From positions 186,001-250,000 of the forward strand of contig NZ_JAJQQP010000005.1 in assembly GCF_028994805.1 (NCBI RefSeq): DNA of 64,000 nt. The letters run 5' to 3'. Made by a program: the position numbers and the translations under genes. This DNA comes from Promicromonospora iranensis (GTDB lineage Bacteria; Actinomycetota; Actinomycetes; Actinomycetales; Cellulomonadaceae). The number at the start of each line of letters is the position of its first letter. The first letter of the stretch is position 1. The notes below the pieces were generated by a model. It was not told the DNA's origin, did no database searches, and saw only the letters and a list, made by a program, of their open reading frames with translations. Shown piece by piece: positions 18,520 through 57,387 of this stretch.

Positions 18520-18521
18520 GG

Positions 18522-35776: not shown

Positions 35777-38700
35777 ATGACGCGCACCAAGACTGTCGTT
35801 GACCCTGCGACGAACGCAGTATCGGCTCCCACCGTGGAACCGATTGCCATCACCGGTATGGGCTGTCGGCTTCCGGGCGGTGTGAACTCGCCCGACGACC
35901 TGTGGCACATGCTCATCAACGGTCTCGACGGTATCCGGAACGTACCGGAGGAGCGCTGGCAGGGTTACGCCGCTGCCCACCCGGCCCAGCTGCGCGCGAC
36001 GACCAAGAGGGCGGGCTTCATCGAGAACGCCGCGGCGTTCGACGCGGCGTTCTTCGGTATCACCCCGCGCGAGGCCGAGCAGATGGATCCTCAGCAGCGC
36101 ATCCTGCTGGAGACGGCGTGGGAGGCGCTCGAGAACGCCGGAGTCCCGCCGATGTCGCTCGCCGGCAGCAACACCGGGGTGTTCATCGGGGTCGGGTCGG
36201 ACGACTACGGGCGGCAGATGCTCGAGGACCTGCCACGTATCGAGGCCTGGACCGGTATCGGCGCCTCCATGTGCGCCACTGCGAACCGGATCTCGTACCA
36301 CCTGGACCTGCGGGGCCCCAGCGTCGCGGTGGACACCGCCTGCTCGTCGTCGCTCGTGGCCGTCCACCAGGCCTGCCAGGCGCTGCGTTCCGGTGAGGCC
36401 CACGTAGCACTCGCGGGCGGCGTGAACATCATGGCGGGCCCCAGCCTCACCATGGTCCTGGACGCCGCCGGCGCGACGTCCCCGGACGGCACGTCGAAGT
36501 CGTTCGACGCGTCGGCGAACGGTTACGGCCGCGGCGAGGGCGCGGGCGTCGTCGTGCTCAAGCGGCTGAGCGACGCCCAGCGCGACGGAGACACCGTCCT
36601 GGCGGTGATCCGCGGGAGCGCCGTACAGCAGGACGGCCGGACCAACGGGATCATGGCGCCGAGCGGGGACGCCCAGGCCGCCGTGGCCCGGCAGGCGCTG
36701 CGCGTGGCCGGCGTCGACCCGCTGACCATCGGCTACGTCGAGGCGCACGGCACCGGCACCCGTGCCGGGGACCCGATCGAGGCGAACGCCCTGAGCAGCG
36801 TGTACGGCGTGGGTCGGGCCGACGACGCGCGGTGCCTGATCGGGTCCGTGAAGCCCAACATCGGGCACCTGGAGGCAGGAGCCGGGATCGCCGGCCTGAT
36901 CAAGGCCGTCCTGTCGCTGGTGCACGCCGAGATCCCGCCCACGATCCGCCACCAGGAGCCGACCCCGGCGGTGGACTGGGCGTCGTCCGGCCTGCAGGTG
37001 GTCGCCGGACGGACTCCGTGGCCGGAGGGCTCGGAGCCGCGGCGCGCGGGCGTCTCCAGCTTCGGTTATGGCGGCACGGTCGGGCACGTGGTGCTCGAAC
37101 AGGCGCCCGAGCAGAGCCAGGAGCAGGGCCAGGAGCAGGGCCGGCCCGCCGTCGAGAGCCACCGGCCACGGGTCCTCCCGGTCTCCGGGGCGAGCACCGA
37201 CGCGGTGCGCGAGTACGCGGCCCGGCTCGCCGGCCGGCTGCGCACGGCGGACGAGATCGACGTCGCCGACGTGGCCCACACGCTGACGACCCGCCGCGAG
37301 CATGCAGGGGTGCGCGCGGCAGTGGTGGCCGGGACGGTCGAGGAGGCGGCAGCCGGCTTCGAGCGCCTGGCGGCAGGTGAGGAGGCCGAGCACAGTCCGG
37401 CCGCCGCCGTCGGCGGGCACGACGCGGTGTGGGTCTTCTCCGGTCACGGGTCCCAGTGGGCCGGCATGGGCCGCGACCTGCTGGCGGACGAGCCGGAGTT
37501 CGCACGGGTCATCGACCGGATCGTCCCGGTCTTCCAGGAAGAGGCAGGCTTCTCCCCGCGTGACGTCATCGTCAGCGGTGACCTCGGCGGGCCGGATCGG
37601 ATCCAGCCGATGATCTTCGCGATCCAGGTCTCTCTGGCCGCGGCGCTGCGCGCTCGGGGCCTGCGCCCCGCCGCCGTGATCGGCCACTCGGTGGGTGAGA
37701 TCGCGGCGGTCGTCGCGGCGGGAGTACTGGACCTCGAGAGCGGCGCCCGCCTGGTCTGCCGCCGGTCCGCGCTGCTCCCCGAGGTAGCCGGCCGGGGCGC
37801 GATGGCCATGGTCTCGCTGCCCTTCGACGAGGCGGAGCGGCGGCTGGCGGACAACCACGACGCCCACGCGGCCATCTCCTCCTCGCCGTCGTCGACAGTG
37901 ATAGCCGGCACCCCGGATGCCGTCGAGCAGGTGAGCACGGCCTGGGCCGCAGAGGGGATCAGGGTCCGCGAGGTCGCGTCCGACGTGGCGTTCCACAGCC
38001 CGCAGATGGACCCGCTGTGCCCGCGGCTCGCGGCCTCGGTGCGCGACCTGGAGCCGCAGGCGCCCGCCGTACCCGTCTACAGCACAGCGCTCGCGGACCC
38101 GCGCTCGGACGCTCCGCGGGACGGCGCCTACTGGGCGGCCAACCTGCGGAACCCGGTGCTGCTCACCTCCGCGGTCCGGGCCGCCGTCGAGGACGGTCAC
38201 CGCTCGTTCATCGAGCTGGCGCCGCACCCGGTGGTCGCGCACTCTATCGAGGAGACGGTCGGGGAGGCCGCCGAGGGTGACGCCGCCGAGACCGGGTTCT
38301 TCGTCACGGGCACGCTGCGGCGCAAGCGCCCGGAGGTCGCGGAGCTGTTGAAGGCCGTGGCGGCCGCGCACGTTCGGGGCGTCACCGTGGACTGGGCGGC
38401 TGCAGCCGAGGAGCACGCGGGACCGGTCACGCTGCCGACCACCGCATGGCAGCACCGGGACTACTGGCGGGCACCGACCGCTGCAGCCGTGGCACAGCGG
38501 CACGACCCCGGTTCGCGCACGCTGCTCGGCACGCTCGTCGAGCTTGCGGACGGGTCCGGGACCCGCGTCTGGCAGACCCAGCTCGACTTCGAGACCCGCC
38601 CGTACCCGGGCGAGCACCCCATCGGCGGAACCGAGGTGCTGCCCGCTGCGGTGCTGCTCACCACGTTCATGTCGGCGTTCGACGGGTCAGGGCTCCGCGA

Positions 38701-41020
38701 CGTCGAGCTGCGCTCACCGGTGCCCGTGACCGGCACGCGTGAGGTCCAGGTCATCCGGGTACAGGACTCGGTGCGCCTCACGTCGCGCCGGCTGGACGGT
38801 GACCAGGAGGCTCCGACCCAGCACACCTTCGCGCGCCGCGGCCCGGCGGCAGTCGAGGGAGCCGAGCCGATCGGGCTGGCCTACACCGCGGCGCGTCGTG
38901 GCGAGCAGTCGGCCCCGGGATCGGTGGCGCAGCGCCTCAAGGACATCGGCGTGGCGGACATCGGCTTCCCGTGGGAGTTCAAGGAGATCCGGACGGCCGA
39001 CGGCGAGATGTACGCGCGGGTCGTCGCGAGCGGCGACACCGAGGGTGCTGAGGAGCCGGACCACTGGGCCTCCCTGTTCGACGCCGTGCTCTCCGTGGCA
39101 CCGATGGCGTTCACGGGCACCCCGGCGCTCCGGATGCCCTCGCGCGTGGGTGAGCTCCGGCTGTACGGCCCCGCGCCGTTCGAGGCGCAGCTCGTCGTGC
39201 GCCACGCTGCCGACACGTCCGACCCGACGACGGTCGACGTCCAGATCGCCGACGCCGAAGGTGTTGTCGCGGCCGAGCTCGTGAACCTGCGGTTCACGGA
39301 GATCGACCCCCCGAGCACGTCGAGCGGGACGCTCGTGCACCGGGTCGCGTGGGAGAGCGTTGCCCTCCCGCCGCAGCGCGCAGGGGCCCGGGTCGTGCTG
39401 GTCGGGGCGGACGGTGCCCTCGGTGCTGCCGTCCAGGCCGCGATCACCGACGCGGACGGATCCGTGACCAGCGTCCCGACCCCGGACGCCCTTTCAGCTC
39501 TCGGGTCGGCTCTCGACCACAGCTCGATCCTCGTCCTTCCCCCGGCGAGCGCCCCGGACCTGCCGGTCGGTGACCTCGCGGTGGCAGCCGCGTGGCAGGT
39601 GGCCCGCACGGTCCAGGTGATGGCGGACGCGGCTCCGGCCGGTGCCCGGGTCTGGGCGGTCACGAGCCGCGGTGACGACCACGCCGTCGTCGAGCAGGCT
39701 CCGGTATGGGGCATGTCGGCGGTGCTCGCTACCGAGCACCCCGACGTCTGGTGCGGCGTCGTGGACCTCGATCCCGGCCATGTCGAGGCGTCGGCCGCCA
39801 CGCTCCCCGCACTCCTGGGCGGCGCCACGACGGACGAGCCGGTCGTCCGGCTGGACGGCGAGACGGCGTGGTACCGGAGGCTGCGCCCCGCGGCGTCCGC
39901 GTCGGCCCGTCCGGCCGTGACCTGCTCGCCGGACGGTACGTACCTGATCACCGGCGGCCTCGGTGTGCTCGGCCTGGAGATCGCCTCGTGGCTCGCCGGC
40001 CGTGGTGCCGCCCGGATCGTGCTCGCCGGACGCTCGGCGCTGCCCCCGCGCTCGGAGTGGGACGACCTCTCCGACCCTGCGGGCCGCCGCAGGATCCACG
40101 CGATCCGTGCCCTGGAGGCGCGCGGCGTCACGGTCCGGGTCATCAGCCTCGACATCACCGACCGCGACCAGGTCGCGGCGGCGCTGACCGCCGAGGCACT
40201 GGGTCTGCCGCCCATCCGCGGTGTGGTGCACGCGGCCGGTGTGCTGGACAGCCGTACGCTCGCCGACCTCGACGAGGACTCGCTCCGGACGGTGCTGCGG
40301 CCCAAGGTGGACGGCGCGCTCGTGCTCGACGAGGTGTTCCAGCCCGGGGAGCTGGACTTCTGCGCCTACTTCTCCTCGATCGGTCTCCTGCTCGGACTGA
40401 CCGGGCAGACCAGCTACGCCGCCGCGAACGCGTTCCTCGACGGCCTGGCCCGGGAGCGCCACGCCCGCGGCGGTACCGAGACGGTCAGCCTGGGCTGGAC
40501 GTCATGGCGCGCGATGGGCATGGCGGCGAGCACCGCCGTCGAGGAGGAGCTCGCGGGGCTGGGCGCCGGGGACATCACCAAGGACGAGGCGTTCCGGTCC
40601 TGGGACGCGGTGGTCCGCAGCGGTGAGCCCCACGCGGCAGTGGTCCGGGTGCTCGAGGTGACCTCGGACGGCCCGGCGGTCCTGCGTGGGCTGGTGGCCG
40701 AACCGGCCGAGACGGCCGACGACGGGGGCGGCACCCTTCGCGAGCTGGCCGGCGATGACCTGGTGGCAGCCGTCACGACGCTGGTCATCGGGGAGACCGC
40801 ACAGGAGACCGGGCAGGCCCCGGAGGCACTGGACGCACGCAGCTCGTTCACCGACCTGGGCCTCGACTCGGTGATGACGATGGCGATCAGGCGTCGCCTG
40901 CAGAAGAAGCTCGGCGTCCGGCTGCCGGCCGCCGTGATGTGGGACCACCCCGACGTCGGCTCGTTCTCCGGGCACCTCGCCGGACGGCTCGAGGAGACCG
41001 CGCTCGTCGCGGGCGCCTGA
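35777..41020 (+). CDS. Iterative type I polyketide synthase, 6-methylsalicylic acid synthase type
   Basis: A 1747-residue single-module PKS with the order KS-AT-DH/TH-KR-ACP and no thioesterase, the architecture and length of bacterial 6-methylsalicylic acid synthases. KS (about 15-440): Cys189 in 'DTACSSS', His in 'EAHGTGT' and 'NIGHLEAG'. AT (about 550-830): Ser638 in 'GHSVGE' and 'VAFHS', a malonyl-type form. DH/TH-like (about 915-1190): His947 in HPIGGTEVLP. KR (about 1385-1590): 'ITGGLGVLG' near 1391 and the 'SYAAANAFLDGLA' catalytic Tyr/Asn. ACP (about 1655-1735): Ser1698 in 'LGLDSVMT'. By family analogy it makes an aromatic tetraketide from acetyl- and three malonyl-CoA with one ketoreduction, giving 6-methylsalicylate; this is inference. 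ATG 35777 follows GAGGAGG. It heads a five-gene operon and needs the PPTase at 47888. Confidence 0.92.
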   Translation: MTRTKTVVDPATNAVSAPTVEPIAITGMGCRLPGGVNSPDDLWHMLINGLDGIRNVPEERWQGYAAAHPAQLRATTKRAGFIENAAAFDAAFFGITPREAEQMDPQQRILLETAWEALENAGVPPMSLAGSNTGVFIGVGSDDYGRQMLEDLPRIEAWTGIGASMCATANRISYHLDLRGPSVAVDTACSSSLVAVHQACQALRSGEAHVALAGGVNIMAGPSLTMVLDAAGATSPDGTSKSFDASANGYGRGEGAGVVVLKRLSDAQRDGDTVLAVIRGSAVQQDGRTNGIMAPSGDAQAAVARQALRVAGVDPLTIGYVEAHGTGTRAGDPIEANALSSVYGVGRADDARCLIGSVKPNIGHLEAGAGIAGLIKAVLSLVHAEIPPTIRHQEPTPAVDWASSGLQVVAGRTPWPEGSEPRRAGVSSFGYGGTVGHVVLEQAPEQSQEQGQEQGRPAVESHRPRVLPVSGASTDAVREYAARLAGRLRTADEIDVADVAHTLTTRREHAGVRAAVVAGTVEEAAAGFERLAAGEEAEHSPAAAVGGHDAVWVFSGHGSQWAGMGRDLLADEPEFARVIDRIVPVFQEEAGFSPRDVIVSGDLGGPDRIQPMIFAIQVSLAAALRARGLRPAAVIGHSVGEIAAVVAAGVLDLESGARLVCRRSALLPEVAGRGAMAMVSLPFDEAERRLADNHDAHAAISSSPSSTVIAGTPDAVEQVSTAWAAEGIRVREVASDVAFHSPQMDPLCPRLAASVRDLEPQAPAVPVYSTALADPRSDAPRDGAYWAANLRNPVLLTSAVRAAVEDGHRSFIELAPHPVVAHSIEETVGEAAEGDAAETGFFVTGTLRRKRPEVAELLKAVAAAHVRGVTVDWAAAAEEHAGPVTLPTTAWQHRDYWRAPTAAAVAQRHDPGSRTLLGTLVELADGSGTRVWQTQLDFETRPYPGEHPIGGTEVLPAAVLLTTFMSAFDGSGLRDVELRSPVPVTGTREVQVIRVQDSVRLTSRRLDGDQEAPTQHTFARRGPAAVEGAEPIGLAYTAARRGEQSAPGSVAQRLKDIGVADIGFPWEFKEIRTADGEMYARVVASGDTEGAEEPDHWASLFDAVLSVAPMAFTGTPALRMPSRVGELRLYGPAPFEAQLVVRHAADTSDPTTVDVQIADAEGVVAAELVNLRFTEIDPPSTSSGTLVHRVAWESVALPPQRAGARVVLVGADGALGAAVQAAITDADGSVTSVPTPDALSALGSALDHSSILVLPPASAPDLPVGDLAVAAAWQVARTVQVMADAAPAGARVWAVTSRGDDHAVVEQAPVWGMSAVLATEHPDVWCGVVDLDPGHVEASAATLPALLGGATTDEPVVRLDGETAWYRRLRPAASASARPAVTCSPDGTYLITGGLGVLGLEIASWLAGRGAARIVLAGRSALPPRSEWDDLSDPAGRRRIHAIRALEARGVTVRVISLDITDRDQVAAALTAEALGLPPIRGVVHAAGVLDSRTLADLDEDSLRTVLRPKVDGALVLDEVFQPGELDFCAYFSSIGLLLGLTGQTSYAAANAFLDGLARERHARGGTETVSLGWTSWRAMGMAASTAVEEELAGLGAGDITKDEAFRSWDAVVRSGEPHAAVVRVLEVTSDGPAVLRGLVAEPAETADDGGGTLRELAGDDLVAAVTTLVIGETAQETGQAPEALDARSSFTDLGLDSVMTMAIRRRLQKKLGVRLPAAVMWDHPDVGSFSGHLAGRLEETALVAGA

Positions 41021-41048
41021 GCCTCACCTACGAGAGAGAGGAACTCAC

Positions 41049-42749
41049 GTGGCTGAACGTACGACGTCGGTAGTGACCGACGATCTGGCGGAGACGATCC
41101 TGCGAGGGGGTGTCACACCCTGGCCCGACGACCTCGCCGAGACCTACCGCGCGGCGGGCTACTGGCGGGACCGTCCCCTCGGCGACCTCGTGTGGGAGTG
41201 GGCGGAGGCGCGCCCGCACGGGCTCGCGGTCGTGGACGGCGACACCCGGTTCACGTACCGGGAGCTCGCGTGCGCGGCCGACCGGGTGGCGGTCCTGCTC
41301 CGCGAGCGAGGGCTGGGGCGCGGTGCGGTCCTGCTGGTCGCGCTGCCCAACGGCTGGGAGCTCGTGGTGCTGTTCCTGGCGTGCCTGCGGGCCGGCGTCG
41401 CGCCGGTGATGATGCTGCCGGCGCACCGTGACCACGAGCTCGCGGCCATCGGCCGGCGGGCCGGCGCGGCGGCGATCGCGGTGCCGGGCATGTTCCGGGA
41501 GTACGACCACCCGGCCATGGCCGACCGGGTCCGCGACCAGGTGCCCTCGCTGTCCGAGGTACTGGTCTGCGGGGACGACGTCGGCGCGCACCATGTCGAC
41601 GTGCGGGCGGCCGTCGAGGACGTGTCGGCCGACGACGTCCTCGCCCGCCGGGCGCACCTGGACGCGACGCCTCCGGCGGCGTCCGACGTCGCGGTCTTCC
41701 TGCTGTCCGGCGGCACGACCGGGCTCTCGAAGGTGATCGCACGCACCCACAACGACTACGAGTACAACGCCCGCCGCAGTGCCGAGGTGTGCGGCTTCGA
41801 CGCGCGCACCGTCTATCTGGCGGCGTTGCCGGCCGGCCACAACTTCCCACTGGCCAGCCCGGGGATCCTCGGGACGCTCATGGTCGGCGGGACCGTGGTG
41901 CTGGTGCCGTCGCCCTCGCCGTCGCGTGTGTTCGAGACGATCGCCGCAGAGCGGGTGACGGTCGTCGCGGCGGTGCCGGCGGTCCTGAGCCGGTGGGTCG
42001 CGGCGGTCGAGTCGGCCCGACCCGACCTCACGAGCCTGAGGCTCGTCCAGGTGGGCGGGTCCCTGTTCGCCAAGGAGGCCTACCGCCGGGCAGTGGACGC
42101 GCTCGGGTGCCGGGTCCAGCAGGTGTACGGGATGGCGGAGGGCCTCCTCTGCTACGTCCGCGAGACGGACCCGGACGACGTCGCAGCGGCCACGCAGGGT
42201 CGGCCGATCAGCGACCACGACGAGCTGCGCATCGTGGACCCGAGCGGCGTCGAGGTGCACGACGGCGAGTCCGGGGAGCTCCTCGTGCGTGGCCCCTACA
42301 CCCCGCGCGGCTACTTCCAGGCGCCCGAGCAGAACCGCGAGGCCTTCACCGACGGCTGGTACCGCACCGGTGACCTCGTGCAACGGCATCCGGGCGGCAA
42401 CCTCGTCGTCGTCGGCCGGACCAAGGATGTGGTCAACCGGGGCGGAGAGAAGATCTCCGCCGACGAGATCGAACGCCTCGTCCAGGCTGTGGACGGCGTG
42501 GCCGACGTCGCGGTGATCGCCGTGCCCGACCCGGAGCTGGGCGAACGGGCGTGTGCCTGTGTGGTGCCCCGGTCCGGCCGGACGGTCACCCTCCAGGACA
42601 TCGGCCGGGCGCTGCGGGCGGCGGGTGTCGCCGAGTTCAAGATCCCCGAGTCGCTGCTCGTGCTGCGGGAGATGCCGCAGACCTCCGTCGGAAAGACCGA
42701 CAAGAACGCACTGTCCCGCATCGTCACCTCGCGGACCCATCTTGCCTGA
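41049..42749 (+). CDS. Aryl-acid AMP ligase (DhbE/EntE-like)
   Basis: A 566-residue ANL-family adenylating enzyme closest in pattern to 2,3-dihydroxybenzoate/salicylate AMP ligases: 'DDLAETYRAAGYWRDRPLGDLV' at the N-terminus is typical of DhbE, then 'VFLLSGGTTGLSKVIARTHNDY', 'VQQVYGMAEGLLCY', 'GWYRTGDLVQRHPGGNLVVVGRTKDVVNRGGEKISADEIE' and the catalytic Lys in 'TSVGKTDKNAL'. It probably activates an aromatic acid (6-methylsalicylate or salicylate) for CoA or carrier-protein loading. No free aryl-carrier protein is in the window, so it may make an aryl-CoA or load the PKS ACP. GTG 41049 follows GAGAGAGG. It lies 28 bases after the PKS. The stop-codon region is duplicated downstream (ttgcctgaccag at 42742 and 42760). 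Confidence 0.88.
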   Translation: MAERTTSVVTDDLAETILRGGVTPWPDDLAETYRAAGYWRDRPLGDLVWEWAEARPHGLAVVDGDTRFTYRELACAADRVAVLLRERGLGRGAVLLVALPNGWELVVLFLACLRAGVAPVMMLPAHRDHELAAIGRRAGAAAIAVPGMFREYDHPAMADRVRDQVPSLSEVLVCGDDVGAHHVDVRAAVEDVSADDVLARRAHLDATPPAASDVAVFLLSGGTTGLSKVIARTHNDYEYNARRSAEVCGFDARTVYLAALPAGHNFPLASPGILGTLMVGGTVVLVPSPSPSRVFETIAAERVTVVAAVPAVLSRWVAAVESARPDLTSLRLVQVGGSLFAKEAYRRAVDALGCRVQQVYGMAEGLLCYVRETDPDDVAAATQGRPISDHDELRIVDPSGVEVHDGESGELLVRGPYTPRGYFQAPEQNREAFTDGWYRTGDLVQRHPGGNLVVVGRTKDVVNRGGEKISADEIERLVQAVDGVADVAVIAVPDPELGERACACVVPRSGRTVTLQDIGRALRAAGVAEFKIPESLLVLREMPQTSVGKTDKNALSRIVTSRTHLA

Positions 42750-42794
42750 CCAGCCTGCCTTGCCTGACCAGGATGACCGGACCCAGGAGGACCA

Positions 42795-45082: not shown

Positions 45083-45109
45083 TTCCCGACGACACCCAGG
45101 AGGGTCACC

Positions 45110-48709: not shown

Positions 48710-48727
48710 TTCTTGGTCAGGCCTTGG
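48710..48727 (+). promoter_or_regulatory. Candidate SARP-binding direct repeat upstream of the SDR
   Basis: TTCTTGG (48710-48716) and GCCTTGG (48721-48727) are 11 bases apart, matching the spacing and sequence of the pair before the PKS. It lies in the divergent gap between the PPTase and the SDR, 24 bases before the SDR start, close enough to overlap its promoter. Confidence 0.5.
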
Positions 48728-48750
48728 TCGGCGCGCCAGAAACTGGGGCC

Positions 48751-49485: not shown

Positions 49486-49514
49486 CCTGCACGTCCGTCC
49501 GTCTTGAAGGGGCC

Positions 49515-49541
49515 GCGCACGGCCGCCTGCCGGCCGTGCGC
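49515..49541 (+). terminator. GC stem-loop between SDR and MFS exporter
   Basis: GCGCACGGC (49515-49523) pairs with GCCGTGCGC (49533-49541), nine-base loop, 30 bases after the SDR stop. It may end or attenuate that transcript before the exporter operon; no U-tract follows. Confidence 0.5.
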
Positions 49542-49573
49542 GCGCTGGGGGAAGTACCGGGGGAAAGGTAGTC

Positions 49574-50767
49574 ATGAACCGAGCAGTTGCCGTCCTGATG
49601 TTCTCGTTGTTCTGCATCGGCAGTGCGGAATTCGTCATAGCGGGCCTGCTGCCCGGGATCTCCGACGACCTGGACGTCTCGATCGCCTCGGCGGGCCTGC
49701 TGGTCAGCGCGTACGCACTGACGGTGGTCGTCGCGGGCCCGGCGCTGACCCTGCTGACCAGCGGGATGCGGCGCAAGCACGTGATGGTGGGGCTCATGGT
49801 GCTGTTCGCCCTGAGCAACTTGCTGGCGGCGTTCGCGCAGGACTACGCGGTTCTGATGGTGTCGCGCGTCCTGAGTGCTCTGGCGCACTGCACCTTCTTC
49901 GCGCTGTCGCTCGTCGTCGGCACCAGCACGGTCGCGCCCGACCGTCAGGGATCGGTGATCGCCAAGCTGGCGATCGGCCTGAACATGGCCAACGTCCTTG
50001 GTGTGCCGCTCGGTGTGCTGCTCGGCACGGAGCTCGGCTGGCGGTCGGTCTTCTGGGTGCTCGCGGGGTGCGGCGTGGTCTCCGCCTGGCTCGTGGCGGT
50101 CCTCGTCCCGGCCGACCAGAAGGCCGAGCCGCCCGCGGGCGTGCGGGCCGAGATCCGTACGCTCGGCCGCAGCCGTGTGCTGATCGCCGTGGCCATCAGC
50201 GCGCTCGGCTGTGGCGGTACGTTCACCGCCTACACCTACATCGCGCCGCTGCTGGAGGACGTGAGCGGGTTCCGCAGCGGCGCCGTCGGCCTCCTGCTCC
50301 TGCTGTTCGGCCTGGGGACGTTCGCGGGGAGCGTCGTCGGCGGCAGGCTGGTCGACCGTGCGCTGATGCCCGCGCTGACCGGACTGTTCGGCACGCTCGC
50401 CCTCGTCCTGGGGCTCTTCTCGGTGCTGGTCGCGAACCCGTGGACCGCGGCGGTGGGTCTCGTCCTGTTCGGCGCGGCCTTCGGGGCGATCCTGCCGGGG
50501 CTCCAGGCGAGGGTGATGCAGGCGGCGGACATCAAGGCGCCCACCTTCGCGCTCGCCGTGAACATCGCGGCCATGAACGTCGGGATCACGTTGGGCTCGT
50601 GGCTGGGCGGGCGGGTGCTGGAGGCCGGCCTCGGGCTGCAGGCCGTGGTCCTGACCGGCTCCGCCGTCGCGGCGGTGGGCTTCCTGGTGGCCGGGATCGA
50701 GCTGCTGCGCGACCGGAACCGGACCGCGCCCCAGGTCGCGGACGTGCAGAGCACACCCGCCCACTAG
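49574..50767 (+). CDS. MFS transporter (DHA1-type drug exporter)
   Basis: A 397-residue membrane protein with twelve predicted hydrophobic helices. The N-terminal 'LFCIGSAEFVIAGLLPGISDDL' and the loop 'SGMRRKHVMVGLMVLFALSNLLAA' match the AraJ/DHA1 branch of the major facilitator family. It probably exports the cluster's product and may give self-resistance. ATG 49574 follows GGGGAAAGG. The next gene starts 13 bases after its stop, so it appears to lead a run of coupled genes up to 55389. Confidence 0.88.
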   Translation: MNRAVAVLMFSLFCIGSAEFVIAGLLPGISDDLDVSIASAGLLVSAYALTVVVAGPALTLLTSGMRRKHVMVGLMVLFALSNLLAAFAQDYAVLMVSRVLSALAHCTFFALSLVVGTSTVAPDRQGSVIAKLAIGLNMANVLGVPLGVLLGTELGWRSVFWVLAGCGVVSAWLVAVLVPADQKAEPPAGVRAEIRTLGRSRVLIAVAISALGCGGTFTAYTYIAPLLEDVSGFRSGAVGLLLLLFGLGTFAGSVVGGRLVDRALMPALTGLFGTLALVLGLFSVLVANPWTAAVGLVLFGAAFGAILPGLQARVMQAADIKAPTFALAVNIAAMNVGITLGSWLGGRVLEAGLGLQAVVLTGSAVAAVGFLVAGIELLRDRNRTAPQVADVQSTPAH

Positions 50768-50779
50768 GAGGCCCGTCGG

Positions 50780-51457
50780 ATGCAGCAGTTAAGCCGCGCG
50801 CAGGAGCACGGGGCGGCGGTGTGGTCCGCCGCCGCTCTGCTCTGCGACATGGACGGGACCCTTGTCGACTCGGCGCGAGCCATCGAACAGGTCTGGACCG
50901 AGCTCGCCGTACGCCACGACCTGCCGTGCTCCGAGGTGCTCGCGGCTCTTCCGGGGCGTACCGCCCGGGACATCCTGCGGCTCTTCCTCGACGACGTCCG
51001 GGTCATCGAGGAGGAGGCTGCCCGGGTCGAGCGCAGTCAGCTCGCGGCGCCCGGGGTCGGGCCGATCCCCGGTGCACACCGGCTGCTCTCCGGCCTGCCC
51101 GCGAACCGCTGGGCGGTCGTCACGGCCGCCCCCGGGGCGGTGGCTCGCGCCCGGCTGGCGGCGGCGGGCCTCCCGGAACCGAAGGTGCTCGTGACCGCGG
51201 AGTCGGTGACCTCTGGCAAACCGAGCCCCGAGGGCTACCGGCTTGCCGCCGAGCGCCTCGGCCTTCCGTGCGAGCGATGCGTCGTGCTCGAGGACGCCGC
51301 CGTCGGGGTGGCGGCGGGGCGTGCCGCGGGAGCCCGGGTCATCGGGATCGGGCCCGGTGGGCAGGGGGCCGACGCCGTCGTGTCCGACCTGCTCTCGTTC
51401 ACCGGACTCGAGTTCACAGGGGAAGGGATCCGGTGGCGCCTCGGCGAGGAGCGGTGA
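50780..51457 (+). CDS. HAD-superfamily phosphatase
   Basis: A 225-residue haloacid-dehalogenase-type phosphatase with motif I 'LLCDMDGTLVDS' (nucleophile and acid Asp), a helical cap, motif II 'VVTAAPG', the Lys in 'TSGKPSPEGY' and motif IV 'VVLEDAAVGVAAG'. It resembles phosphoglycolate phosphatase/DOG-type sugar phosphatases. Next to a kinase it probably removes phosphate from a cyclitol intermediate. ATG 50780 follows AGGAGG. The fourth codon is TTA (50789-50791), rare in such GC-rich genomes and in Streptomyces a point of bldA control. The stop overlaps the next start (GTGA). Confidence 0.88.
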   Translation: MQQLSRAQEHGAAVWSAAALLCDMDGTLVDSARAIEQVWTELAVRHDLPCSEVLAALPGRTARDILRLFLDDVRVIEEEAARVERSQLAAPGVGPIPGAHRLLSGLPANRWAVVTAAPGAVARARLAAAGLPEPKVLVTAESVTSGKPSPEGYRLAAERLGLPCERCVVLEDAAVGVAAGRAAGARVIGIGPGGQGADAVVSDLLSFTGLEFTGEGIRWRLGEER

Positions 51458-52467
51458 CCGACGGCGCAGCGCCGGACCCGTCGACCCGTACACCGACGGT
51501 GCGGATCGACGTGGGCGGCACCTGGATCAGGACCGAGTCCGATGGTGTCCGGCGGCGGATGCCCGCCCCGAGCAGGATCAACCATCCCGACGTGCCGGCG
51601 ACGGTCCTGGTCGACCGGCTGGTGGACCAACTGGTCTCGGTCGCGCCGAGGGCCGGCCGGGTCGTCGTCTCGCTCGGGGCCGCGATGGACGACGTCACCG
51701 GGACGGTCCGCGGCTCCGGGCCCCTGTGGGGCGACTGGCTGATGGACCGTGATCTCGTCGGCGTGCTCCGGCGGGCACGGCCAGGCGTGGCATGGCACGT
51801 CTTCAACGACGTCACGTGCGGGCTGGCCGACTTCGCCGACTCGGTGGCACAGGAGTCGCCGGCGAGCGTCGGCTACCTGACCGTCAGCAGCGGTATCGGG
51901 CTCAAGATCGCAGAACTCGGCACGGGAACCGTCAAGGTCGACGAGGACGGGCTGCAGGGTGAGGTCGGCCACCTTCCCGTCGCGCTCGCCCCGGAGACCG
52001 CCGGGCTCGGCCACCTGTCCTGCGAGTGCGGCGGGACAGGGCACGTGGCTTCGGTCAGCTCCGGCCCGGGCATCGCTCGGGTGGCGGGGACCCTCGGCAT
52101 CGGCCGTTACAGCACCGAGTGGTTCCGTCAGGCGGTCACCCAGGGGGACGACGACGCGTCCGCCCTGCTCGCGACGGTCACCCGCCCCGTCGCCGAGGTG
52201 CTGCGCGCCATCTGGGTGACCCAGCCGTGGGTCACGGTCATCGGGATCGGAGGAGGCGTCGCCGAAGGGCTCGGTGAGCCCTACCGGACGGCTCTCCTGA
52301 AACACCTGCGGGGAGCCGGCAGCTATGCCGCAGGCGCGCCGGATGCCTGGGAGCGCCGTGTCCGGCTCCTGGACCACCCCGGCGTCGACGTGCTGCGCGG
52401 GGCTCAGCTCCTCGCCGAAGGATCACTCGCCATCACCAGGGCTCAGGAGGCCGATCACCGATCATGA
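51454..52467 (+). CDS. ROK-type sugar/cyclitol kinase
   Basis: A 337-residue kinase of the ROK/ASKHA fold: 'VRIDVGGTWIRTES' phosphate motif, 'FNDVTCGLADF' with the catalytic Asp, 'LTVSSGIGLKI' and a Cys-rich 'LSCECGGTGHVASV' matching the ROK zinc motif. There is no DNA-binding domain. ROK kinases in acarbose and validamycin clusters (AcbM, ValC) phosphorylate the 7-hydroxyl of C7 cyclitols, which suits the cyclase in this cluster, so cyclitol 7-kinase is the best guess. GTG 51454 overlaps the HAD stop; its own stop overlaps the next ATG (ATGA). Confidence 0.82.
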   Translation: MTDGAAPDPSTRTPTVRIDVGGTWIRTESDGVRRRMPAPSRINHPDVPATVLVDRLVDQLVSVAPRAGRVVVSLGAAMDDVTGTVRGSGPLWGDWLMDRDLVGVLRRARPGVAWHVFNDVTCGLADFADSVAQESPASVGYLTVSSGIGLKIAELGTGTVKVDEDGLQGEVGHLPVALAPETAGLGHLSCECGGTGHVASVSSGPGIARVAGTLGIGRYSTEWFRQAVTQGDDDASALLATVTRPVAEVLRAIWVTQPWVTVIGIGGGVAEGLGEPYRTALLKHLRGAGSYAAGAPDAWERRVRLLDHPGVDVLRGAQLLAEGSLAITRAQEADHRS

Positions 52468-53618
52468 CAAAGAACCTGGCCATCCGGCGCTTCCACGGCG
52501 CGAGCGCCGTCGTCGACCAGCCGGTGCCCGCTCCGGGTCCCGGCGAGGTGGTCCTGGCGCCGGAAGCCGTCAGCCTGTGCGGTACCGACCTGCAGATGCT
52601 GCGCGGGATCCGCGACGACCCCTCAGCGGTGCTGGGCCACGAGGGTGCGTGCCGCGTGGCCGACGTCGGTCCGGGCGTCACCGTTCTCGCGGTCGGTGAC
52701 CGGGTAACGGTGAACCCCACCCATCCCGGCGACCCGACCTTCCTGCTCGGGCACAACGTCGAGGGGCTGTTCCAGCAGCGGGTGCGGATCGCCGCGTCTG
52801 CGGTCGCGGCTGGGCTCCTGGTCCCGATCGGTGAGGACCTGGACTCGGCCACCGCGACGCTGATCGAGCCGCTCGCGATCACCGACTACGCCCTGGACTG
52901 TCTTGCCGACGCATCCGTCCGACCCGGATCGACGGCCGACGTCCTGGCGGTCCTCGGCGACGGGCTCGTCGGCAACCTCGCCGCGATCCGCGGAGCCGCC
53001 CGCGGCCCGTGGTCGCGTGTAGTGCTCGCGCACACGTCGATGGCCGGGCTGCAGTGGTCCGTCGACACGTGGGGCGAGCACGCCATCGAGCACGTGCTGG
53101 TCGACGACCTCCCGGCGGCCGTCGGCGGCGACCGCCTCCACGCCCTGGTCGCCACGCACCGTGACCGGACGCTGGACCTCGTGGACCTGCTGGCGGGGCA
53201 CCTGGGAGACAGCACGACAGCCATGCACGTCACAGGCGGTGTACCCGCCGACGCCCGTCCGGTAAACCTGCCGGGTGTGGACCTCGTCGGCGTCCGAGCC
53301 GCGAACACCGGGGGACCCTGGCCGCCGCGGCGGACCGTTTGGGAGTCCGGCGAGCGGCAGATCCGGCTCACGGGGAACCGCGGGGTCACGAGCGCGGCGC
53401 TGGCCGTGGCCGCCGCCGAGCTCGTGACGTACGGGCCGGATCTGGCTCCGCTGATCACGCACCGCACCGACCTCCGGGGCGGGGCGGACCTGATGAACAG
53501 GATGGTCTCGGCGCGTTCCCGCCACATCGACGACCGCCTCGTGGTACGTCTGGTCGTCATGGTCAACCCGGATCTGCGCACACCCGCGCCGGCCATGGAA
53601 CACTCCGAGGAGATCTGA
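52464..53618 (+). CDS. MDR-family dehydrogenase without structural zinc site
   Basis: A 384-residue medium-chain dehydrogenase. Catalytic-zinc positions are seen ('[11 protein letters not shown]' and 'LGHEGACR'), but the four-cysteine structural lobe is missing, in contrast to the dehydrogenase at 44006. The Rossmann motif '[15 protein letters not shown]' is present with an Asp in the glycine run. It resembles the cyclitol reductase type of MDR enzyme by context only. Its ATG overlaps the kinase stop, and its stop shares an A with the next start (TGATG), so it is tightly coupled. Confidence 0.75.
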
Positions 53619-54421
53619 TGGTCGAGACCGCGCTCGTCACGGGTGCCAGCTCCGGCATCGGGAGATCGACGGCTCTGGCTCTCGCCGCGGCCGGGTACCA
53701 CGTCCTGGTGGGGTACGGCGGCAATGAACGGGCCGCACAGGAGGTCACCGCTCTGATCGCCGCGCGGAGCTGGCCCGTGGCCACGGCGGTGCACGTCCCG
53801 CTCGACACACCGGAGCGTGCGCTCGCGGCCGGCCGTCGGGTGCTCGACGCGCACGGGCCCGTCCATGTCCTGGTGAACAACGCGGGCGTCAACCGCCGTG
53901 CGAGCTTCCTCGACGAGGACCTCGCCGCTTGGCAGGAGGTCCTGAACATCGACCTGGTCGGGCCGTTCGTCCTTGCGCAGCAGGTGGCCAGGCAGATGGT
54001 GGACGCCGGGATCCGTGGCCGCGTCGTCAACGTGACCAGCGTCCACGAGCGCATCCCGATCACCGGCGGTACCTCGTACTGCGTGGCGAAGAGCGGTCTC
54101 GGGATGCTGACCAAGGTCATGGCGCTCGAGCTCGGCACGCACGGGATCACTGTCAACTCGGTAGCGCCGGGGGAGACCGCGACGCCCATGAACGGCCAAC
54201 CGGAGGGGACCGACCCGCACGAGCTCGCACGGCCCGCACTCCCGGCCGGGCGTCCGGGCGACCCGGACGAGGTGGCCACGCTCATCGCCTACCTGTGCTC
54301 CCCGGGCGCGGGTTACGTCACGGGCCAGTCGTTCGTGATCGACGGCGGGCTGGAGCTCGTCGCGGCGGACGCAAACGTTTTGCCGACGCCGACGCCGGTG
54401 GGCTCCCCGGAAGCCGGCTGA
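53618..54421 (+). CDS. Short-chain dehydrogenase/reductase (2)
   Basis: A 267-residue classical SDR: '[11 protein letters not shown]' (7-17), 'LVNNAGVN', Ser141, Tyr154 and Lys158 in 'SYCVAKSG', and '[12 protein letters not shown]'. Residues after the first strand ('[11 protein letters not shown]') are compatible with either cofactor. It may act on the cyclitol or on a reduced polyketide. The ATG at 53618 overlaps the previous stop. Its 3' end overlaps the hydrolase gene by one base. Confidence 0.88.
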
Positions 54422-55389
54422 TGTGGCGGGCGCTCGAAGCCGCCGACCGGGACGGCGGGTTCGTCTCGCACGCGTTCCCCGAGCTGGTGGTGGACCTCGG
54501 CGAGATCCGCATGAACTACGCGGTCGCCGGCGACCCGGCGCTGCCGCCGCTGCTGCTGGTCCCCGGCCAGACCGAGTCGTGGTGGGGGTACGAGCGGTTG
54601 ATGCAGCTGTTGAAGGACCGGTTCCGCCTCTACGCGGTCGACCTGCGCGGGCAGGGCCGCTCGACCTGGACGCCGGGGCGCTACACACTGGACAACTTCG
54701 GCAACGATCTGGTCCGGTTCATCGACCTGGTCGTCGGGCAGCCGGTCCTGGTGAGCGGCAACTCGTCCGGCGGGGTGCTCGCCGCGTGGCTGACCGCCTA
54801 CGCCAAGCCCGGTCAGGTGCTCGCCGCCGCCCTGGAGGACCCTCCCCTGTTCGCCTCCGAGATCGACCCGGCGGTAGGCCCCGGCATCTCGGGGGGTATC
54901 GGGCCGCTGTTCGAGCACTGGAACATCTGGCTCGGCGACCAGTGGTCCCGCGGTGACTGGGAGGGCGCGCGGCGGTCGCTTGCGACCGGTCTCCCGCCCG
55001 AGCTGCTGCGCGGGCTGGCGGTGATGGAGCCGCCGTCGGAGGACACGGGGGCGGCGGCGCCGCAGAACCTGCTCGAGTACGACCCTGAGTGGGGGCGCGC
55101 CTTCGTCAGCGGCAGCGTCTCGGCCGCCGTCAACCACGAGCACATGCTGTCGTGCGTCACCGCGCCGATCCTTCTGACACACCACGTCCGACAGCTCGAT
55201 CCCGTCTCCGACCGGCTGCTCGGTGCGCTCTCCGACGAGCAGGCTGCCAGAGCCTGCGAACTGGTTGAGTCGGCCGGTCAACGCGTGTCGTACCAGTCGT
55301 TCCCGGACGCACCGCACGCTATGCATCGCATCGATCCCGAGCGGTTCGCGGAGACGATTACCGGCTGGTACGCGCAGCTGCGTCTGTGA
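54421..55389 (+). CDS. Alpha/beta-hydrolase
   Basis: A 322-residue alpha/beta-hydrolase-fold protein. The nucleophile elbow is 'VLVSGNSSGGVLAAW' (G-N-S-S-G), the oxyanion strand is 'LLLVPGQTESWWGYERLM', and the catalytic His is in 'DAPHAMHRIDPERF'. It could be an esterase, lactonase or a tailoring acyl hydrolase, perhaps releasing a PKS product, as the PKS has no thioesterase. The ATG shares a base with the SDR stop. It is the last gene of the run and converges on the SARP gene, with 18 bases between the stops. Confidence 0.83.
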   Translation: MWRALEAADRDGGFVSHAFPELVVDLGEIRMNYAVAGDPALPPLLLVPGQTESWWGYERLMQLLKDRFRLYAVDLRGQGRSTWTPGRYTLDNFGNDLVRFIDLVVGQPVLVSGNSSGGVLAAWLTAYAKPGQVLAAALEDPPLFASEIDPAVGPGISGGIGPLFEHWNIWLGDQWSRGDWEGARRSLATGLPPELLRGLAVMEPPSEDTGAAAPQNLLEYDPEWGRAFVSGSVSAAVNHEHMLSCVTAPILLTHHVRQLDPVSDRLLGALSDEQAARACELVESAGQRVSYQSFPDAPHAMHRIDPERFAETITGWYAQLRL

Positions 55390-55407
55390 GCGCCACCTCC
55401 CCGCGCT

Positions 55408-57387
55408 TCACGCGACGTGAGAGGGGTGCGCCGGTGAGCGGGAACCGGGCCTCGTCGCGACGGGTACCGACGCCGTGCCGGTCCGGGCCTCCTCGGTGGC
55501 AAGCACGCGAGGCGTGTCGTCCGACGCCGGCGCGCTCCATCGGGCGCCGAGCGACGTCCACTGCCGTACGTCGACCGGGACATCGAGGGCGTGCGCGGGC
55601 TCATGGCGCAGCAGCGCGTGCAACCTGACCAGCTCCGGAAAGCGGTATGTCACCTGACCGGTCGGGCGTGGCTCCGTGACGGTGAGGAGGCTGGCGTCGA
55701 CCAACTCGGCCACCGGGCACTCCGCGTTGGCGAGCCCTGTACCGAGGAATCGCGCGGCGTCCTGCATGGTGAAGTCCGGGCCGTCGATGGCACACAGCCG
55801 CCGGAAAGCCCATCGATACGCGGGCGCCAGTCGGAGATAGGCGTCCTCGAGCGAGGCGCTCGGATCCAGACGTCGCGTGACGAGCTCCTGCAGCCGCTGG
55901 TCGCGGTCGCGCATGCGGTCGACGAGCTCCACGACCCGCCACGAGGGACGTGCGGCCAGCTTCTCAGCGGCGGCCCTGATCGCCAGGGGAAGGTTGTCGC
56001 ACAGGCGCACCAGCTCGTTCGCCGCACCCGGCTCCTTGGCGACCCGCGAGTCACCGACCACCTGGCGCAGCAGGTGCACGCCGTCGGCGACAGGAAGCGG
56101 ACCGACCTTGACGCGCTGTGCGCCCGCCAGACCCTGAAGGCCGACCCTGGTGGTGACGAGAGCGGCACACGCCGGACCCGCCGGGATCAGATGGATCAGC
56201 GTCTCGACGTGCACGGCGTCGTCGAGGACGACGAGTACGCGCCGCCCCGAGGTCCAGCTCCGGTACAGGCCTGTGCGTTCGGACAACGTGTCCGGGACCT
56301 GGCCCTTCGGTACGCCGAAGGCGAGCAGGAAGTGCTCGAGCACGTCGAAGGGATCGACGACGGGACCAAGAGCGGCGAAGAGCTGTCCGTCGGGAAATTC
56401 CGGACGAAGAGTGTGTCCCATATGCGTCGCGAGCATCGTCTTGCCTGCGCCGGCTGCCCCCTTGAGAACGACTACACGAGGCGCGTTCCCAGCGGATCCG
56501 CGGCGCACGAGTGCCGCCAGCTCGCGACGTTCGGCCCGCCGTCCCACAAAGTCCCCGCTGTCCGGGGGAATCTGTGCGGGAGCGATGGTCAGGAACGGAT
56601 CGGCAGGCGGCGGCGCCTCGGCGTGCACCAGGGGCGCAGGGTCGAGAGTTCCCTCGATGATCTGCTTCTGCAGCTCCACCAGCCGCGAAGACGGATCCAG
56701 TCCGAGCGTCGTGACCATCCGGTCACGCAGGTCCGTGAAGACGCTGAGAGCGCGGCTGCGGTCGCCGGCTCCGCAGAGGGCCGTCATGAGCTGGGCATGG
56801 AAACCCTCGTGCAAGGGGTTGGATGCGGCGAGCAGCTCCAGCTCGGGAAGAAGGTCCCGGTGCTCGCCGAGGCCGAGGGCGACGTCGATCAGCTGCTCCC
56901 GCAGCCTGAGCCGGTCTCCCTCGGCCCGCGTGACGATCGGTTGCAGCAGCGACCCCAGTCGGACGTCGGCCAGCATCGCACCGCGCCACAGCCCCAGCGT
57001 CCCGCGCCACCGTTCCAGCGCTCCACGAGGGTTGCCGCCAAGGAGCTCGGTCAGCCCTTGCTGGACCGCGGTCTCGAACTCCCAGTAGTCGAGCTCTCCT
57101 GGCTGGACGCGGATCTTGTACCCGAGCGGTGACGACTCGATCCTGCTCGCTCCGGCGCCGGGGCCGTCCAGGTGCTTCCGCAACGTATAGATATAGGTCT
57201 GTACCGTCTTCCGCGCCAGCTTCGGCGGGTGATCGTCCCAGAGCTCGTCCACGAGCGAGCTCACCGTGACGGTCCGGTTGTAGTTGAGCAGCAGCAGGGC
57301 GAGGACCCGCCGGGGCATGGCCGCCGAGATAGTTCCGCATGCCGTCGGGCCTTCGGCCTCAAGAGGCCCCAGGATCTGGAACTTCAT
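55408..57387 (-). CDS. SARP-family pathway regulator with ATPase domain
   Basis: A 659-residue AfsR/SARP-type activator. Domain order: OmpR-like winged helix (1-95, 'MKFQILGPLEAEG...VQTYIYTLRKHLDG'), bacterial transcriptional activation domain (97-245, 'YWEFETAV...HAQLMTALCGAGDRSRAL'), then an NB-ARC-type ATPase with P-loop GAAGAGKT (310-317) and Walker B 'RVLVVLDDA'. It lacks the C-terminal TPR repeats of full AfsR. SARPs activate antibiotic genes by binding direct repeats, and TTCTTGG pairs lie before the PKS and an SDR. ATG 57387 has AGGAGG before it. Its proximity to the cluster makes it the likely pathway-specific activator. Confidence 0.92.
   Translation of the reverse strand: MKFQILGPLEAEGPTACGTISAAMPRRVLALLLLNYNRTVTVSSLVDELWDDHPPKLARKTVQTYIYTLRKHLDGPGAGASRIESSPLGYKIRVQPGELDYWEFETAVQQGLTELLGGNPRGALERWRGTLGLWRGAMLADVRLGSLLQPIVTRAEGDRLRLREQLIDVALGLGEHRDLLPELELLAASNPLHEGFHAQLMTALCGAGDRSRALSVFTDLRDRMVTTLGLDPSSRLVELQKQIIEGTLDPAPLVHAEAPPPADPFLTIAPAQIPPDSGDFVGRRAERRELAALVRRGSAGNAPRVVVLKGAAGAGKTMLATHMGHTLRPEFPDGQLFAALGPVVDPFDVLEHFLLAFGVPKGQVPDTLSERTGLYRSWTSGRRVLVVLDDAVHVETLIHLIPAGPACAALVTTRVGLQGLAGAQRVKVGPLPVADGVHLLRQVVGDSRVAKEPGAANELVRLCDNLPLAIRAAAEKLAARPSWRVVELVDRMRDRDQRLQELVTRRLDPSASLEDAYLRLAPAYRWAFRRLCAIDGPDFTMQDAARFLGTGLANAECPVAELVDASLLTVTEPRPTGQVTYRFPELVRLHALLRHEPAHALDVPVDVRQWTSLGARWSAPASDDTPRVLATEEARTGTASVPVATRPGSRSPAHPSHVA

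What the first reader, a model, noticed from the sequence alone, without database searches (positions are those of the whole stretch)
35777..57387. Biosynthetic cluster joining a 6-methylsalicylate-type PKS with a C7-cyclitol pathway
The cluster has a KS-AT-DH-KR-ACP iterative PKS, an aryl-AMP ligase, an EEVS-like sugar-phosphate cyclase, a ROK-type kinase, a HAD phosphatase, two MDR and two SDR enzymes, a KAS III-like acyltransferase, an exported FAD oxidase, a PPTase, an MFS pump and a SARP regulator. EEVS-type pathways give carbasugars; MSAS-type PKSs give 6-methylsalicylate, which KAS III-like enzymes can transfer to sugars. No aminotransferase or glycosyltransferase is present, so a plain C7-cyclitol ester of 6-methylsalicylate is the simplest prediction (inference). 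I do not recognise this combination as a described cluster.
Basis: partly seen in the sequence, partly recalled or inferred. Interest (0 to 1): 0.9.

Follow-up and report, generated by a model that had tools for sequence, protein, structure and literature searches.

The report
Polyketide-acylated C7-cyclitol gene cluster
An actinobacterium carries an inserted 22-kb gene cluster that most likely makes a sugar-like ring (a C7-cyclitol), joins to it a small aromatic polyketide (6-methylsalicylate), exports it and oxidises it outside the cell, a combination of known parts that we did not find described.

Summary
The cluster is real and its edges can be set. Ten of ten sibling genomes fetched have the empty site, so 35639-57638 is an insertion. 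Antribacter soli holds the same cluster (66-85% protein identity, PKS to SARP) with other flanks, no hydrolase, and its PPTase (45%) beyond the SARP. The cyclase is of EEVS (ValA) type, not DHQ synthase or DDGS. The PKS has intact KS-AT-DH-KR-ACP motifs; the ligase is nearest a salicylate-AMP ligase; the KAS III-like transferase has Ser for the catalytic Cys. The twin-arginine FAD oxidase is nearest TamL and AknOx, which make ketones or enones from alcohols. Of 31 cyclase loci compared, 9 of 20 non-DDGS loci carry this oxidase and all 9 carry an acyltransferase; 0 of 9 DDGS-like and 0 of 2 other loci do. Best reading: a valienol-type cyclitol is acylated with 6-methylsalicylate and oxidised outside the cell to a COTC/gabosine-like enone. 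The acylated C7-cyclitol is well supported; enone, ester position and stereochemistry are inferred. New variant built of known modules.

The parts
35639..57638 (.). Whole insertion: biosynthetic cluster between class II DAHP synthase and Rv2175c/PASTA-kinase homologues
   Evidence: Empty site in 10 of 10 sibling genomes fetched, of 12 siblings; nucleotide homology stops at 35624-35638 and resumes at 57636-57639 in the four siblings compared
35777..41020 (+). Iterative type I PKS, KS-AT-DH-KR-ACP, 1747 aa (6-methylsalicylate synthase type)
   Evidence: Pfam; DTACS, EAHGTG, NIGH, GHSVG, VAFH, HPIGGTEVLP, TGGLGVLG, QTSYAAAN, GLDS; 78% identical in Antribacter
41049..42749 (+). Aryl-AMP ligase of the salicylate/DHB type
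   Evidence: Salicylate-AMP ligase 5wm2 (CahJ, identity recalled) 551 bits, DHB-AMP ligases 471-472; Ser in place of the Cys of 5wm2 and PchD in the HNFPLASPG pocket
42795..44009 (+). Sedoheptulose 7-phosphate cyclase, EEVS (ValA) type
   Evidence: 4p53 458 bits; motif and tree; below the NCBIfam AroB cut-offs
44060..45082 (+). MDR1, zinc alcohol/polyol dehydrogenase
   Evidence: ADH_N and ADH_zinc_N; NCBIfam threonine and scyllo-inosose dehydrogenases, below cut-off
45110..46138 (+). KAS III-like acyltransferase with Ser115-His293-Asp298 (Ser for Cys)
   Evidence: DpsC (identity recalled), CerJ and ChlB3 are the best named solved relatives; residues; Ser also in Antribacter and G417, Cys in G258
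46277..47887 (+). BBE-like FAD oxidase with twin-arginine motif and the His and Cys of bicovalent flavin
   Evidence: TTRRGFLAG, GGH, GSCP; TamL 525 bits, AknOx 455
47888..48622 (-). 4'-phosphopantetheinyl transferase
   Evidence: 4PPT_N and ACPS; in Antribacter a 45% identical one lies beyond the SARP gene, L010 about 15359-15943
48679..49485 (+). SDR1
   Evidence: Pfam; 85% identical in Antribacter
49574..50767 (+). MFS exporter (Cmx/CmrA-like, below cut-off)
   Evidence: MFS_1; 294 bits against a cut-off of 400
50780..51457 (+). HAD sugar-phosphatase-like
   Evidence: Pfam; NCBIfam
51454..52467 (+). ROK-family kinase (cyclitol kinase candidate)
   Evidence: ROK 43 bits; DVGGTW and CECGGTG read in the sequence
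52464..53618 (+). MDR2, MDR without the structural-zinc Cys cluster (cyclitol oxidoreductase candidate)
   Evidence: ADH_N; sequence read by eye; recurs with EEVS and ROK
53618..54421 (+). SDR2
   Evidence: Pfam; NF009384 SDR oxidoreductase over cut-off
54421..55389 (+). Alpha/beta hydrolase, no counterpart in the Antribacter stretch
   Evidence: Abhydrolase_1; no hit in Antribacter at 1e-10 or 1e-3
55408..57387 (-). SARP/AfsR-type regulator
   Evidence: BTAD 120 bits; 66% identical in Antribacter
34042..35631 (+). Class II DAHP synthase: core-genome neighbour, not part of the cluster
   Evidence: Present in 13 of 13 genus genomes, own included; over NCBIfam cut-off
57637..60021 (.). Rv2175c homologue and PASTA kinase: core-genome neighbours, not part of the cluster
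   Evidence: Pfam; next to DAHP synthase in 10 of 10 siblings fetched

Best explanation
The cluster makes a 6-methylsalicylate-acylated, oxidised C7-cyclitol. The cyclase turns sedoheptulose 7-phosphate into 2-epi-5-epi-valiolone (family shown, activity inferred). The ROK kinase phosphorylates it at O7; MDR2 and one or more SDR/MDR enzymes convert the phosphate to a valienol-type cyclitol; the HAD enzyme removes the phosphate (all inferred from the acarbose and validamycin routes). The PKS, activated by the PPTase, builds 6-methylsalicylate; the KAS III-like enzyme moves it, directly from the PKS or after reactivation by the aryl-AMP ligase, to a hydroxyl of the cyclitol, probably O7 (inferred). 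The MFS pump exports the ester, and the twin-arginine-exported FAD oxidase oxidises a ring (allylic) alcohol outside the cell, giving a COTC/gabosine-like enone that the producer never holds inside (inferred). The SARP switches the cluster on (inferred).
For: Cyclase class. PKS domains and catalytic motifs complete, KR included; the Nonomuraea PKS, 50% identical over residues 21-1207, has its ACP match 46 bases further on, so it has no KR, as expected of an orsellinate synthase. Ligase nearest a salicylate-AMP ligase, taken as CahJ (recalled), which is proposed to serve salicylate and 6-MSA starters (PMC4757757 passages). KAS III-like transferase nearest DpsC, CerJ, ChlB3. Oxidase nearest TamL and AknOx with both flavin-binding residues and a twin-arginine motif; TamL makes a ketone from C10-OH, AknOx makes ketone then enone on a sugar, and Tat-exported relatives SfmCy2 and NapU act outside the cell on prodrugs (PMC11375781 passages). 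In the comparison, 9 of 20 non-DDGS cyclase loci hold the oxidase and 9 of these 9 hold an acyltransferase (Acyl_transf_3 or KAS III), against 0 of 9 DDGS-like and 0 of 2 other loci; ten DAHP-synthase loci of 16-18 kb give no oxidase or acyltransferase hit either. The twin-arginine motif is in all 8 full-length oxidases of these loci (seven by pattern, G212 read by eye). Kinase, MDR2 and phosphatase go with the oxidase in 5 of 9 (Antribacter, G212, three Streptomyces). In G258 the same kind of ligase (43%) and KAS III (36%) sit with a salicylate synthase over cut-off, so this transfer pair occurs with a salicylate-type acid beside an EEVS.
Against: No enzyme was assayed and no product seen. 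No known 2-epimerase (VOC or TIM-barrel type) is in the cluster, so stereochemistry at C2 is open. In 4 of the 9 oxidase loci (G047, G082, G417, G258) kinase, MDR2 and phosphatase are not found, so the phosphate route is not tied to the oxidase. The ligase pocket has Ser where CahJ and PchD have Cys, which may mean another aryl acid. No free aryl carrier protein fits: no gap between neighbouring cluster genes exceeds about 140 bp. PKSs of this layout also make naphthoates (recalled; PMC2636887 places the neocarzinostatin PKS in the same group). The KAS III-like enzyme lacks the Cys of ChlB3/CerJ. The oxidase could act on another group, or before acylation. The ester position is a guess by analogy with COTC. 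Export was read from the motif, not measured.
Confidence: 0.55

Rival explanations
1. Plain ester: the product is an unoxidised 6-methylsalicyl C7-cyclitol, and the exported FAD oxidase serves degradation, salvage or resistance, as CrmK does in caerulomycin.
For: Cluster content otherwise the same; CrmK, a salvage oxidase, is the third-best solved relative at 442 bits (role from PMC11375781).
Against: The oxidase goes with an acyltransferase in 9 of 9 loci that hold it, and TamL and AknOx score higher.
Confidence: 0.2
2. The PKS makes a different aryl acid (a naphthoate, or a 6-MSA oxidised further), attached to the C7-cyclitol. (The rivals overlap; their odds need not add to one.)
For: The same domain layout serves naphthoate synthases (recalled; group in PMC2636887); the ligase pocket has the Ser of the DHB ligase 1md9.
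Against: Ligase overall nearest a salicylate-AMP ligase; in G258 the homologous ligase/KAS III pair goes with a salicylate synthase; no oxygenase family for a 3-hydroxylation among the cluster genes.
Confidence: 0.15
3. Two separate pathways that sit side by side: a 6-MSA pathway (PKS, ligase, KAS III) and a cyclitol pathway, with no joint product.
For: The cyclitol set occurs without PKS, ligase or KAS III in three Streptomyces loci and G212.
Against: Genes of the two sets are interleaved in one run (PKS, ligase, cyclase, MDR1, KAS III, oxidase) and this order is kept in Antribacter with other flanks; the Streptomyces and G212 loci carry another acyltransferase in place of the 6-MSA set.
Confidence: 0.06
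4. The cyclase is an EVS or another cyclase of the family, so that the ring has different stereochemistry.
For: No characterised EVS sequence was available for the tree; deeper branches of the tree are weakly resolved.
Against: Motifs of the ValA kind (KTGVNF, KNRLGTY, VDYGHSFSP, HRDG), 458 bits to 4p53.
Confidence: 0.1

Closest known systems
COTC and gabosines (Streptomyces carbasugar enones)
   Same: C7 carbasugar ring; COTC bears an acyl ester on the CH2O arm; predicted enone. Streptomyces loci with EEVS, Acyl_transf_3 and oxidase would fit such a product (inference).
   Different: COTC carries crotonate, not a polyketide aryl acid (name and reference titles in PMC2635666, passages). No gene cluster for COTC was seen in the rows listed.
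Nabscessins (Nocardia abscessus)
   Same: 6-methylsalicylate on a cyclitol (PMC11364655 passages).
   Different: Ring from 2-deoxy-scyllo-inosose synthase, aminated, plus 3-hydroxybenzoate; here an EEVS-type cyclase and no aminotransferase.
Pactamycin
   Same: 6-MSA moiety (PMC2636887 passage) and a KAS III-like protein in its biosynthesis (title in the reference list of PMC9573744; the name PtmR and its transfer role are recalled).
   Different: Aminocyclopentitol core, not an EEVS product (recalled).
Acarbose/validamycin C7-cyclitol pathways
   Same: EEVS cyclase; ROK-type kinase and HAD phosphatase are used there too (PMC9200736 passages).
   Different: No nucleotidyltransferase, pseudoglycosyltransferase or amine-forming gene seen here; acylation and oxidation instead.
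Epoxyquinomicin (structure recalled)
   Same: Salicyl group joined to a C7N ring; locus G258 has a fitting gene set: salicylate synthase, ligase, KAS III, EEVS, aminotransferase, oxidase, halogenase-like gene.
   Different: Amide and salicylate from chorismate; the window has a PKS and no aminotransferase. The assignment of G258 is inference.
Chlorothricin, cahuitamycin C
   Same: Bacterial 6-MSA synthase with KAS III-like (ChlB3) or ligase (CahJ) hand-over (PMC9573744, PMC4757757 passages).
   Different: Acceptors are a carrier protein or NRPS, not a cyclitol.

Membership tests
[quoted passage not shown]
   458 bits 4p53 (ValA), 252 5tpr (DDGS), 134 best other DHQS, 77 DOIS 2d2x (names of 4p53 and 5tpr recalled); tree
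[quoted passage not shown]
   Alignments; that these residues tell the classes apart is recalled
[quoted passage not shown] told apart from EVS | not testable with these tools
   No EVS reference sequence, no assay
Bacterial 6-methylsalicylate synthase | Single KS-AT-DH-KR-ACP protein | tested here: met
   architecture as stated in PMC4757757
Bacterial 6-methylsalicylate synthase | Malonyl-type AT and complete KR | tested here: met
   GHSVG; VAFH, the strict HAFH/YASH pattern gave no match; TGGLGVLG, SS, Y, N
Bacterial 6-methylsalicylate synthase | Groups with 6-MSA rather than naphthoate synthases | not tested
   No reference sequences of either were at hand
KAS III-like acyltransferase (ChlB3/CerJ) | Best solved relatives are acyltransferase-type KAS III | tested here: met
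   DpsC, CerJ, ChlB3 204-220 bits; two chains named 3-oxoacyl-ACP synthase (9z38 200, 7vyu 169) of kind unknown to me; the other FabH-type chains at most 54
KAS III-like acyltransferase (ChlB3/CerJ) | Cys-His-Asp triad | tested here: not met
   Ser-His-Asp here and in Antribacter; Ser as in DpsC (PMC9573744 passages)
BBE-like alcohol oxidase (TamL/AknOx type) | Bicovalent flavin residues His and Cys | tested here: met
   His and Cys in the window and in 7 of 7 related loci aligned
BBE-like alcohol oxidase (TamL/AknOx type) | Oxidises an alcohol | not testable with these tools
   Activity not assayed
Nabscessin cluster | 2-deoxy-scyllo-inosose synthase | tested here: not met
   DOIS 2d2x scores 77 bits against 458 for 4p53
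COTC/gabosine class (product) | Cyclohexenone C7 carbasugar | not testable with these tools
   Product unknown; predicted only

The most novel reading that the evidence does not exclude
There is a multi-genus actinobacterial family of acyl-C7-cyclitol prodrug pathways: EEVS core, exchangeable acyl module (membrane acyltransferase; salicylate synthase with ligase and KAS III; or, here, a 6-MSA polyketide synthase with ligase and KAS III), and a Tat-exported flavin oxidase that converts the exported ester into a thiol-reactive enone outside the cell. The window and Antribacter hold its first polyketide-bearing members, with an aryl acid as leaving group.
Probability: 0.35. Interest if true: 0.75.

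Novelty: new variant of a known kind. Interest (0 to 1): 0.6.

Why it matters
It would be a natural meeting of iterative aromatic polyketide and carbasugar biosynthesis, with an acyl-module swap visible across genera. If the exported oxidase is the last step, it makes extracellular activation of a carbasugar electrophile testable with one knockout, and it offers a lead to genes for COTC-type compounds, for which I saw no cluster.

Tried and rejected
Considered and rejected: (1) DAHP synthase as a pathway gene feeding the cyclase: it is a core neighbour present in 13 of 13 genus genomes and next to Rv2175c/PASTA kinase in 10 of 10 fetched. (2) Cyclase as DHQS or DDGS. (3) A cyclase-acyltransferase fusion in G047/G082, suggested by a 782-residue open frame: in L013 the acyltransferase match lies in another frame, no fusion. 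(4) A mobile element as carrier: no repeat at the edges in a search of 35500-57800 and no integrase among the genes named there. (5) My recalled ValA residue numbers did not fit the chain numbering, so only motifs are given. (6) My first belief that Antribacter lacks the PPTase was wrong: one search found it (45%) beyond the SARP gene; the odds did not need changing.

Weak points: the tree has long branches (own AroB, G238, G520, G564a) and the window's kin beyond Antribacter are unresolved. The DDGS label rests on 5tpr, whose identity is recalled. All 31 loci were found by likeness to the window cyclase: 5 from the family search, 4 from the genome-contig scan (three of them close Streptomyces relatives), 1 of 112 plasmid records (the best-ranked one, Agrobacterium vitis, was not examined), 21 from the class search. 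The acyltransferase queries came from two of the loci themselves (L016, L044). G082 and G551a are short stretches, and the oxidase hit in G082 is a 90-residue end piece. Two loci without the oxidase (G246, G569) have an acyltransferase. No genome-wide rate of the oxidase family was measured. G184 and G186 were not fetched for the empty-site test. No MIBiG or antiSMASH comparison is available here. Paper searches cover only the open library, and most listed a part: 25 of 167, 25 of 1,612 (10), 15 of 236 (29), 25 of 62 (30), 12 of 337 (48), 4 of 4 (62), 6 of 6 (77), 8 of 186 (78), 2 of 2 (79). No paper was read whole: PMC11364655, PMC9200736, PMC9573744, PMC4757757, PMC2635666, PMC5877590, PMC5466765, PMC10741444, PMC11375781, PMC2636887, PMC13274763 and PMC4426668 were seen as passages.

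Full report
What is there. The window is part of contig C27 of a 5.84 Mb genome. With genus siblings of 5.0-6.8 Mb the source is probably Promicromonospora (inference; four strains of that genus at 5.4-6.0 Mb and Antribacter gilvus at 5.1 Mb are tabulated in PMC13274763, passages).

Borders. The run of cluster genes sits between a class II DAHP synthase and homologues of Rv2175c, a PASTA kinase and a polyprenyl synthase. DAHP synthase is found in 13 of 13 genus genomes. I fetched 10 of the 12 siblings; in all 10 DAHP synthase lies within 700 bases of the Rv2175c homologue, followed by the kinase, and PKS, cyclase and SARP give no hit there. DNA homology to four siblings ends at 35624-35638 and starts again at 57636-57639. 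None of the 12 siblings has a cyclase match at E <= 1e-40. In Antribacter the genes from PKS to SARP are kept in order at 66-85% protein identity, and none of the flank genes tested gives a hit in the 35 kb held. Two differences: the PPTase is not between oxidase and SDR1 there but beyond the SARP gene (45% identical), and the alpha/beta hydrolase gives no hit. The cluster is thus one inherited unit, gained by horizontal transfer in at least one of the two lineages (inference).

Cyclase. Solved relatives rank 4p53 (ValA) 458, 5tpr (DDGS; both names recalled) 252, other DHQ synthases up to 134, DOIS 77 bits. Motifs agree with ValA and differ from 5tpr and DHQS, including the genome's own AroB. 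In the tree four DHQ synthases stand apart (100/99), ten rows with 5tpr form their own group (100/100), and the window pairs with Antribacter (100/100) among EEVS-like rows whose deeper order is unresolved. EVS could not be told apart.

Acyl module. The PKS has KS, AT, DH, KR and ACP with their catalytic motifs. Of 267 plasmid-collection records with a match, 12 were listed; the two kinds of highest identity (Nonomuraea 53%, Pseudonocardia 50%) match over KS-AT-DH, the rest at 33-36% over nearly the whole length. The Nonomuraea PKS has no KR and lies beside two KAS III-like genes, as expected for an orsellinate synthase, so the intact KR here points to 6-MSA; the Pseudonocardia PKS also gave no match past residue 1175, though its gene is long enough for a KR. 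The ligase is nearest a salicylate-AMP ligase (551 bits), taken as CahJ (recalled), proposed to handle salicylate and 6-MSA starters (PMC4757757 passages). Against this, its pocket has Ser where CahJ and PchD have Cys, as in Antribacter. The KAS III-like protein is of the acyltransferase kind but has Ser115 with His293 and Asp298; Ser is kept in Antribacter and G417 and is Cys in G258. No free carrier protein fits between the genes (gaps up to about 140 bp).

Cyclitol module and oxidase. ROK kinase, HAD phosphatase and MDR2 matches recur beside EEVS genes in Antribacter, G212, G095, three Streptomyces, S. clavuligerus, G246 and G569, and are missing in the other 11 of the 20. Kinases related to ROK proteins and a HAD phosphatase serve the acarbose and validamycin routes (PMC9200736 passages). 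The oxidase has a twin-arginine motif and both flavin-binding residues and is nearest TamL (525 bits), AknOx (455) and CrmK (442). TamL turns a hydroxyl into a ketone; AknOx makes a ketone and then an enone on a sugar; Tat-exported relatives SfmCy2 and NapU mature prodrugs outside the cell (PMC11375781 passages).

Comparison. I compared 31 cyclase loci (20 EEVS-like or unplaced, 9 DDGS-like, 2 others). The oxidase is near 9 of the 20, 0 of 9 and 0 of 2. All 9 loci with the oxidase have an acyltransferase; of the 11 without it, 2 have one (G246, G569). The PKS is near only Antribacter's. As a further control, ten DAHP-synthase loci of 16-18 kb gave no hit to oxidase, acyltransferases, kinase or MDR2 at E 1e-8. 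The twin-arginine motif is present in all 8 full-length oxidases. Three acyl modules appear: a membrane Acyl_transf_3 (Pfam in S. griseocarneus, G212 and G417; by tblastn in the other Streptomyces and G047/G082), KAS III with ligase and salicylate synthase (G258; 444 bits against a cut-off of 325), and KAS III with ligase and PKS (window, Antribacter). This swap is the strongest argument that the 6-MSA unit is put onto the cyclitol.

Mechanism and limits. Shown by sequence: families, motifs, order, borders, co-occurrence. Inferred: every reaction, the ester position, the enone, and self-protection by late oxidation. A COTC-like product is chosen because COTC is an acyl ester on the CH2O arm of a C7 cyclohexenone (reference titles in PMC2635666) and because oxidising the allylic ring alcohol of a valienol would give that ring (chemistry reasoned here). 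Missing 2-epimerase, the Ser residues and the untested PKS product are the main doubts.

Novelty. The rows listed by paper searches show no work joining an EEVS with a 6-MSA synthase; most lists were capped, the library is open-access only, and MIBiG was not available. Nabscessins show that nature joins 6-MSA with cyclitols, but of another ring origin. I rate it a new variant of a known kind.

Noticed in passing
L045 (G258) 3702-19980: Locus with salicylate synthase, KAS III, salicyl-AMP ligase, aminotransferase, EEVS, VOC and cupin proteins, twin-arginine FAD oxidase and a tryptophan-halogenase-like gene: fits a chlorosalicyl C7N compound such as epoxyquinomicin (recalled).
   Followed up: partly
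L016, L017, L018 (Streptomyces griseocarneus, UNOB3_S3, S. olivoreticuli): EEVS, Acyl_transf_3, FAD oxidase, ROK, MDR2 and HAD gene set without PKS: candidate loci for COTC or gabosine-like esters.
   Followed up: partly
window 45110-46138: Ser replaces the catalytic Cys of ChlB3/CerJ-type enzymes and is kept in Antribacter and G417.
   Followed up: partly
L022 12588-18852 (Nonomuraea gerenzanensis): Iterative PKS relative without a KR, beside two KAS III-like genes; probably an orsellinate pathway.
   Followed up: no
window 49574-50767: MFS pump nearest the Cmx/CmrA chloramphenicol exporters (294 bits, cut-off 400), so the export substrate is unknown.
   Followed up: no
window 32838-34214: Phosphofructokinase of the pyrophosphate-dependent type (NF005121, over cut-off), a core-genome neighbour.
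   Followed up: no
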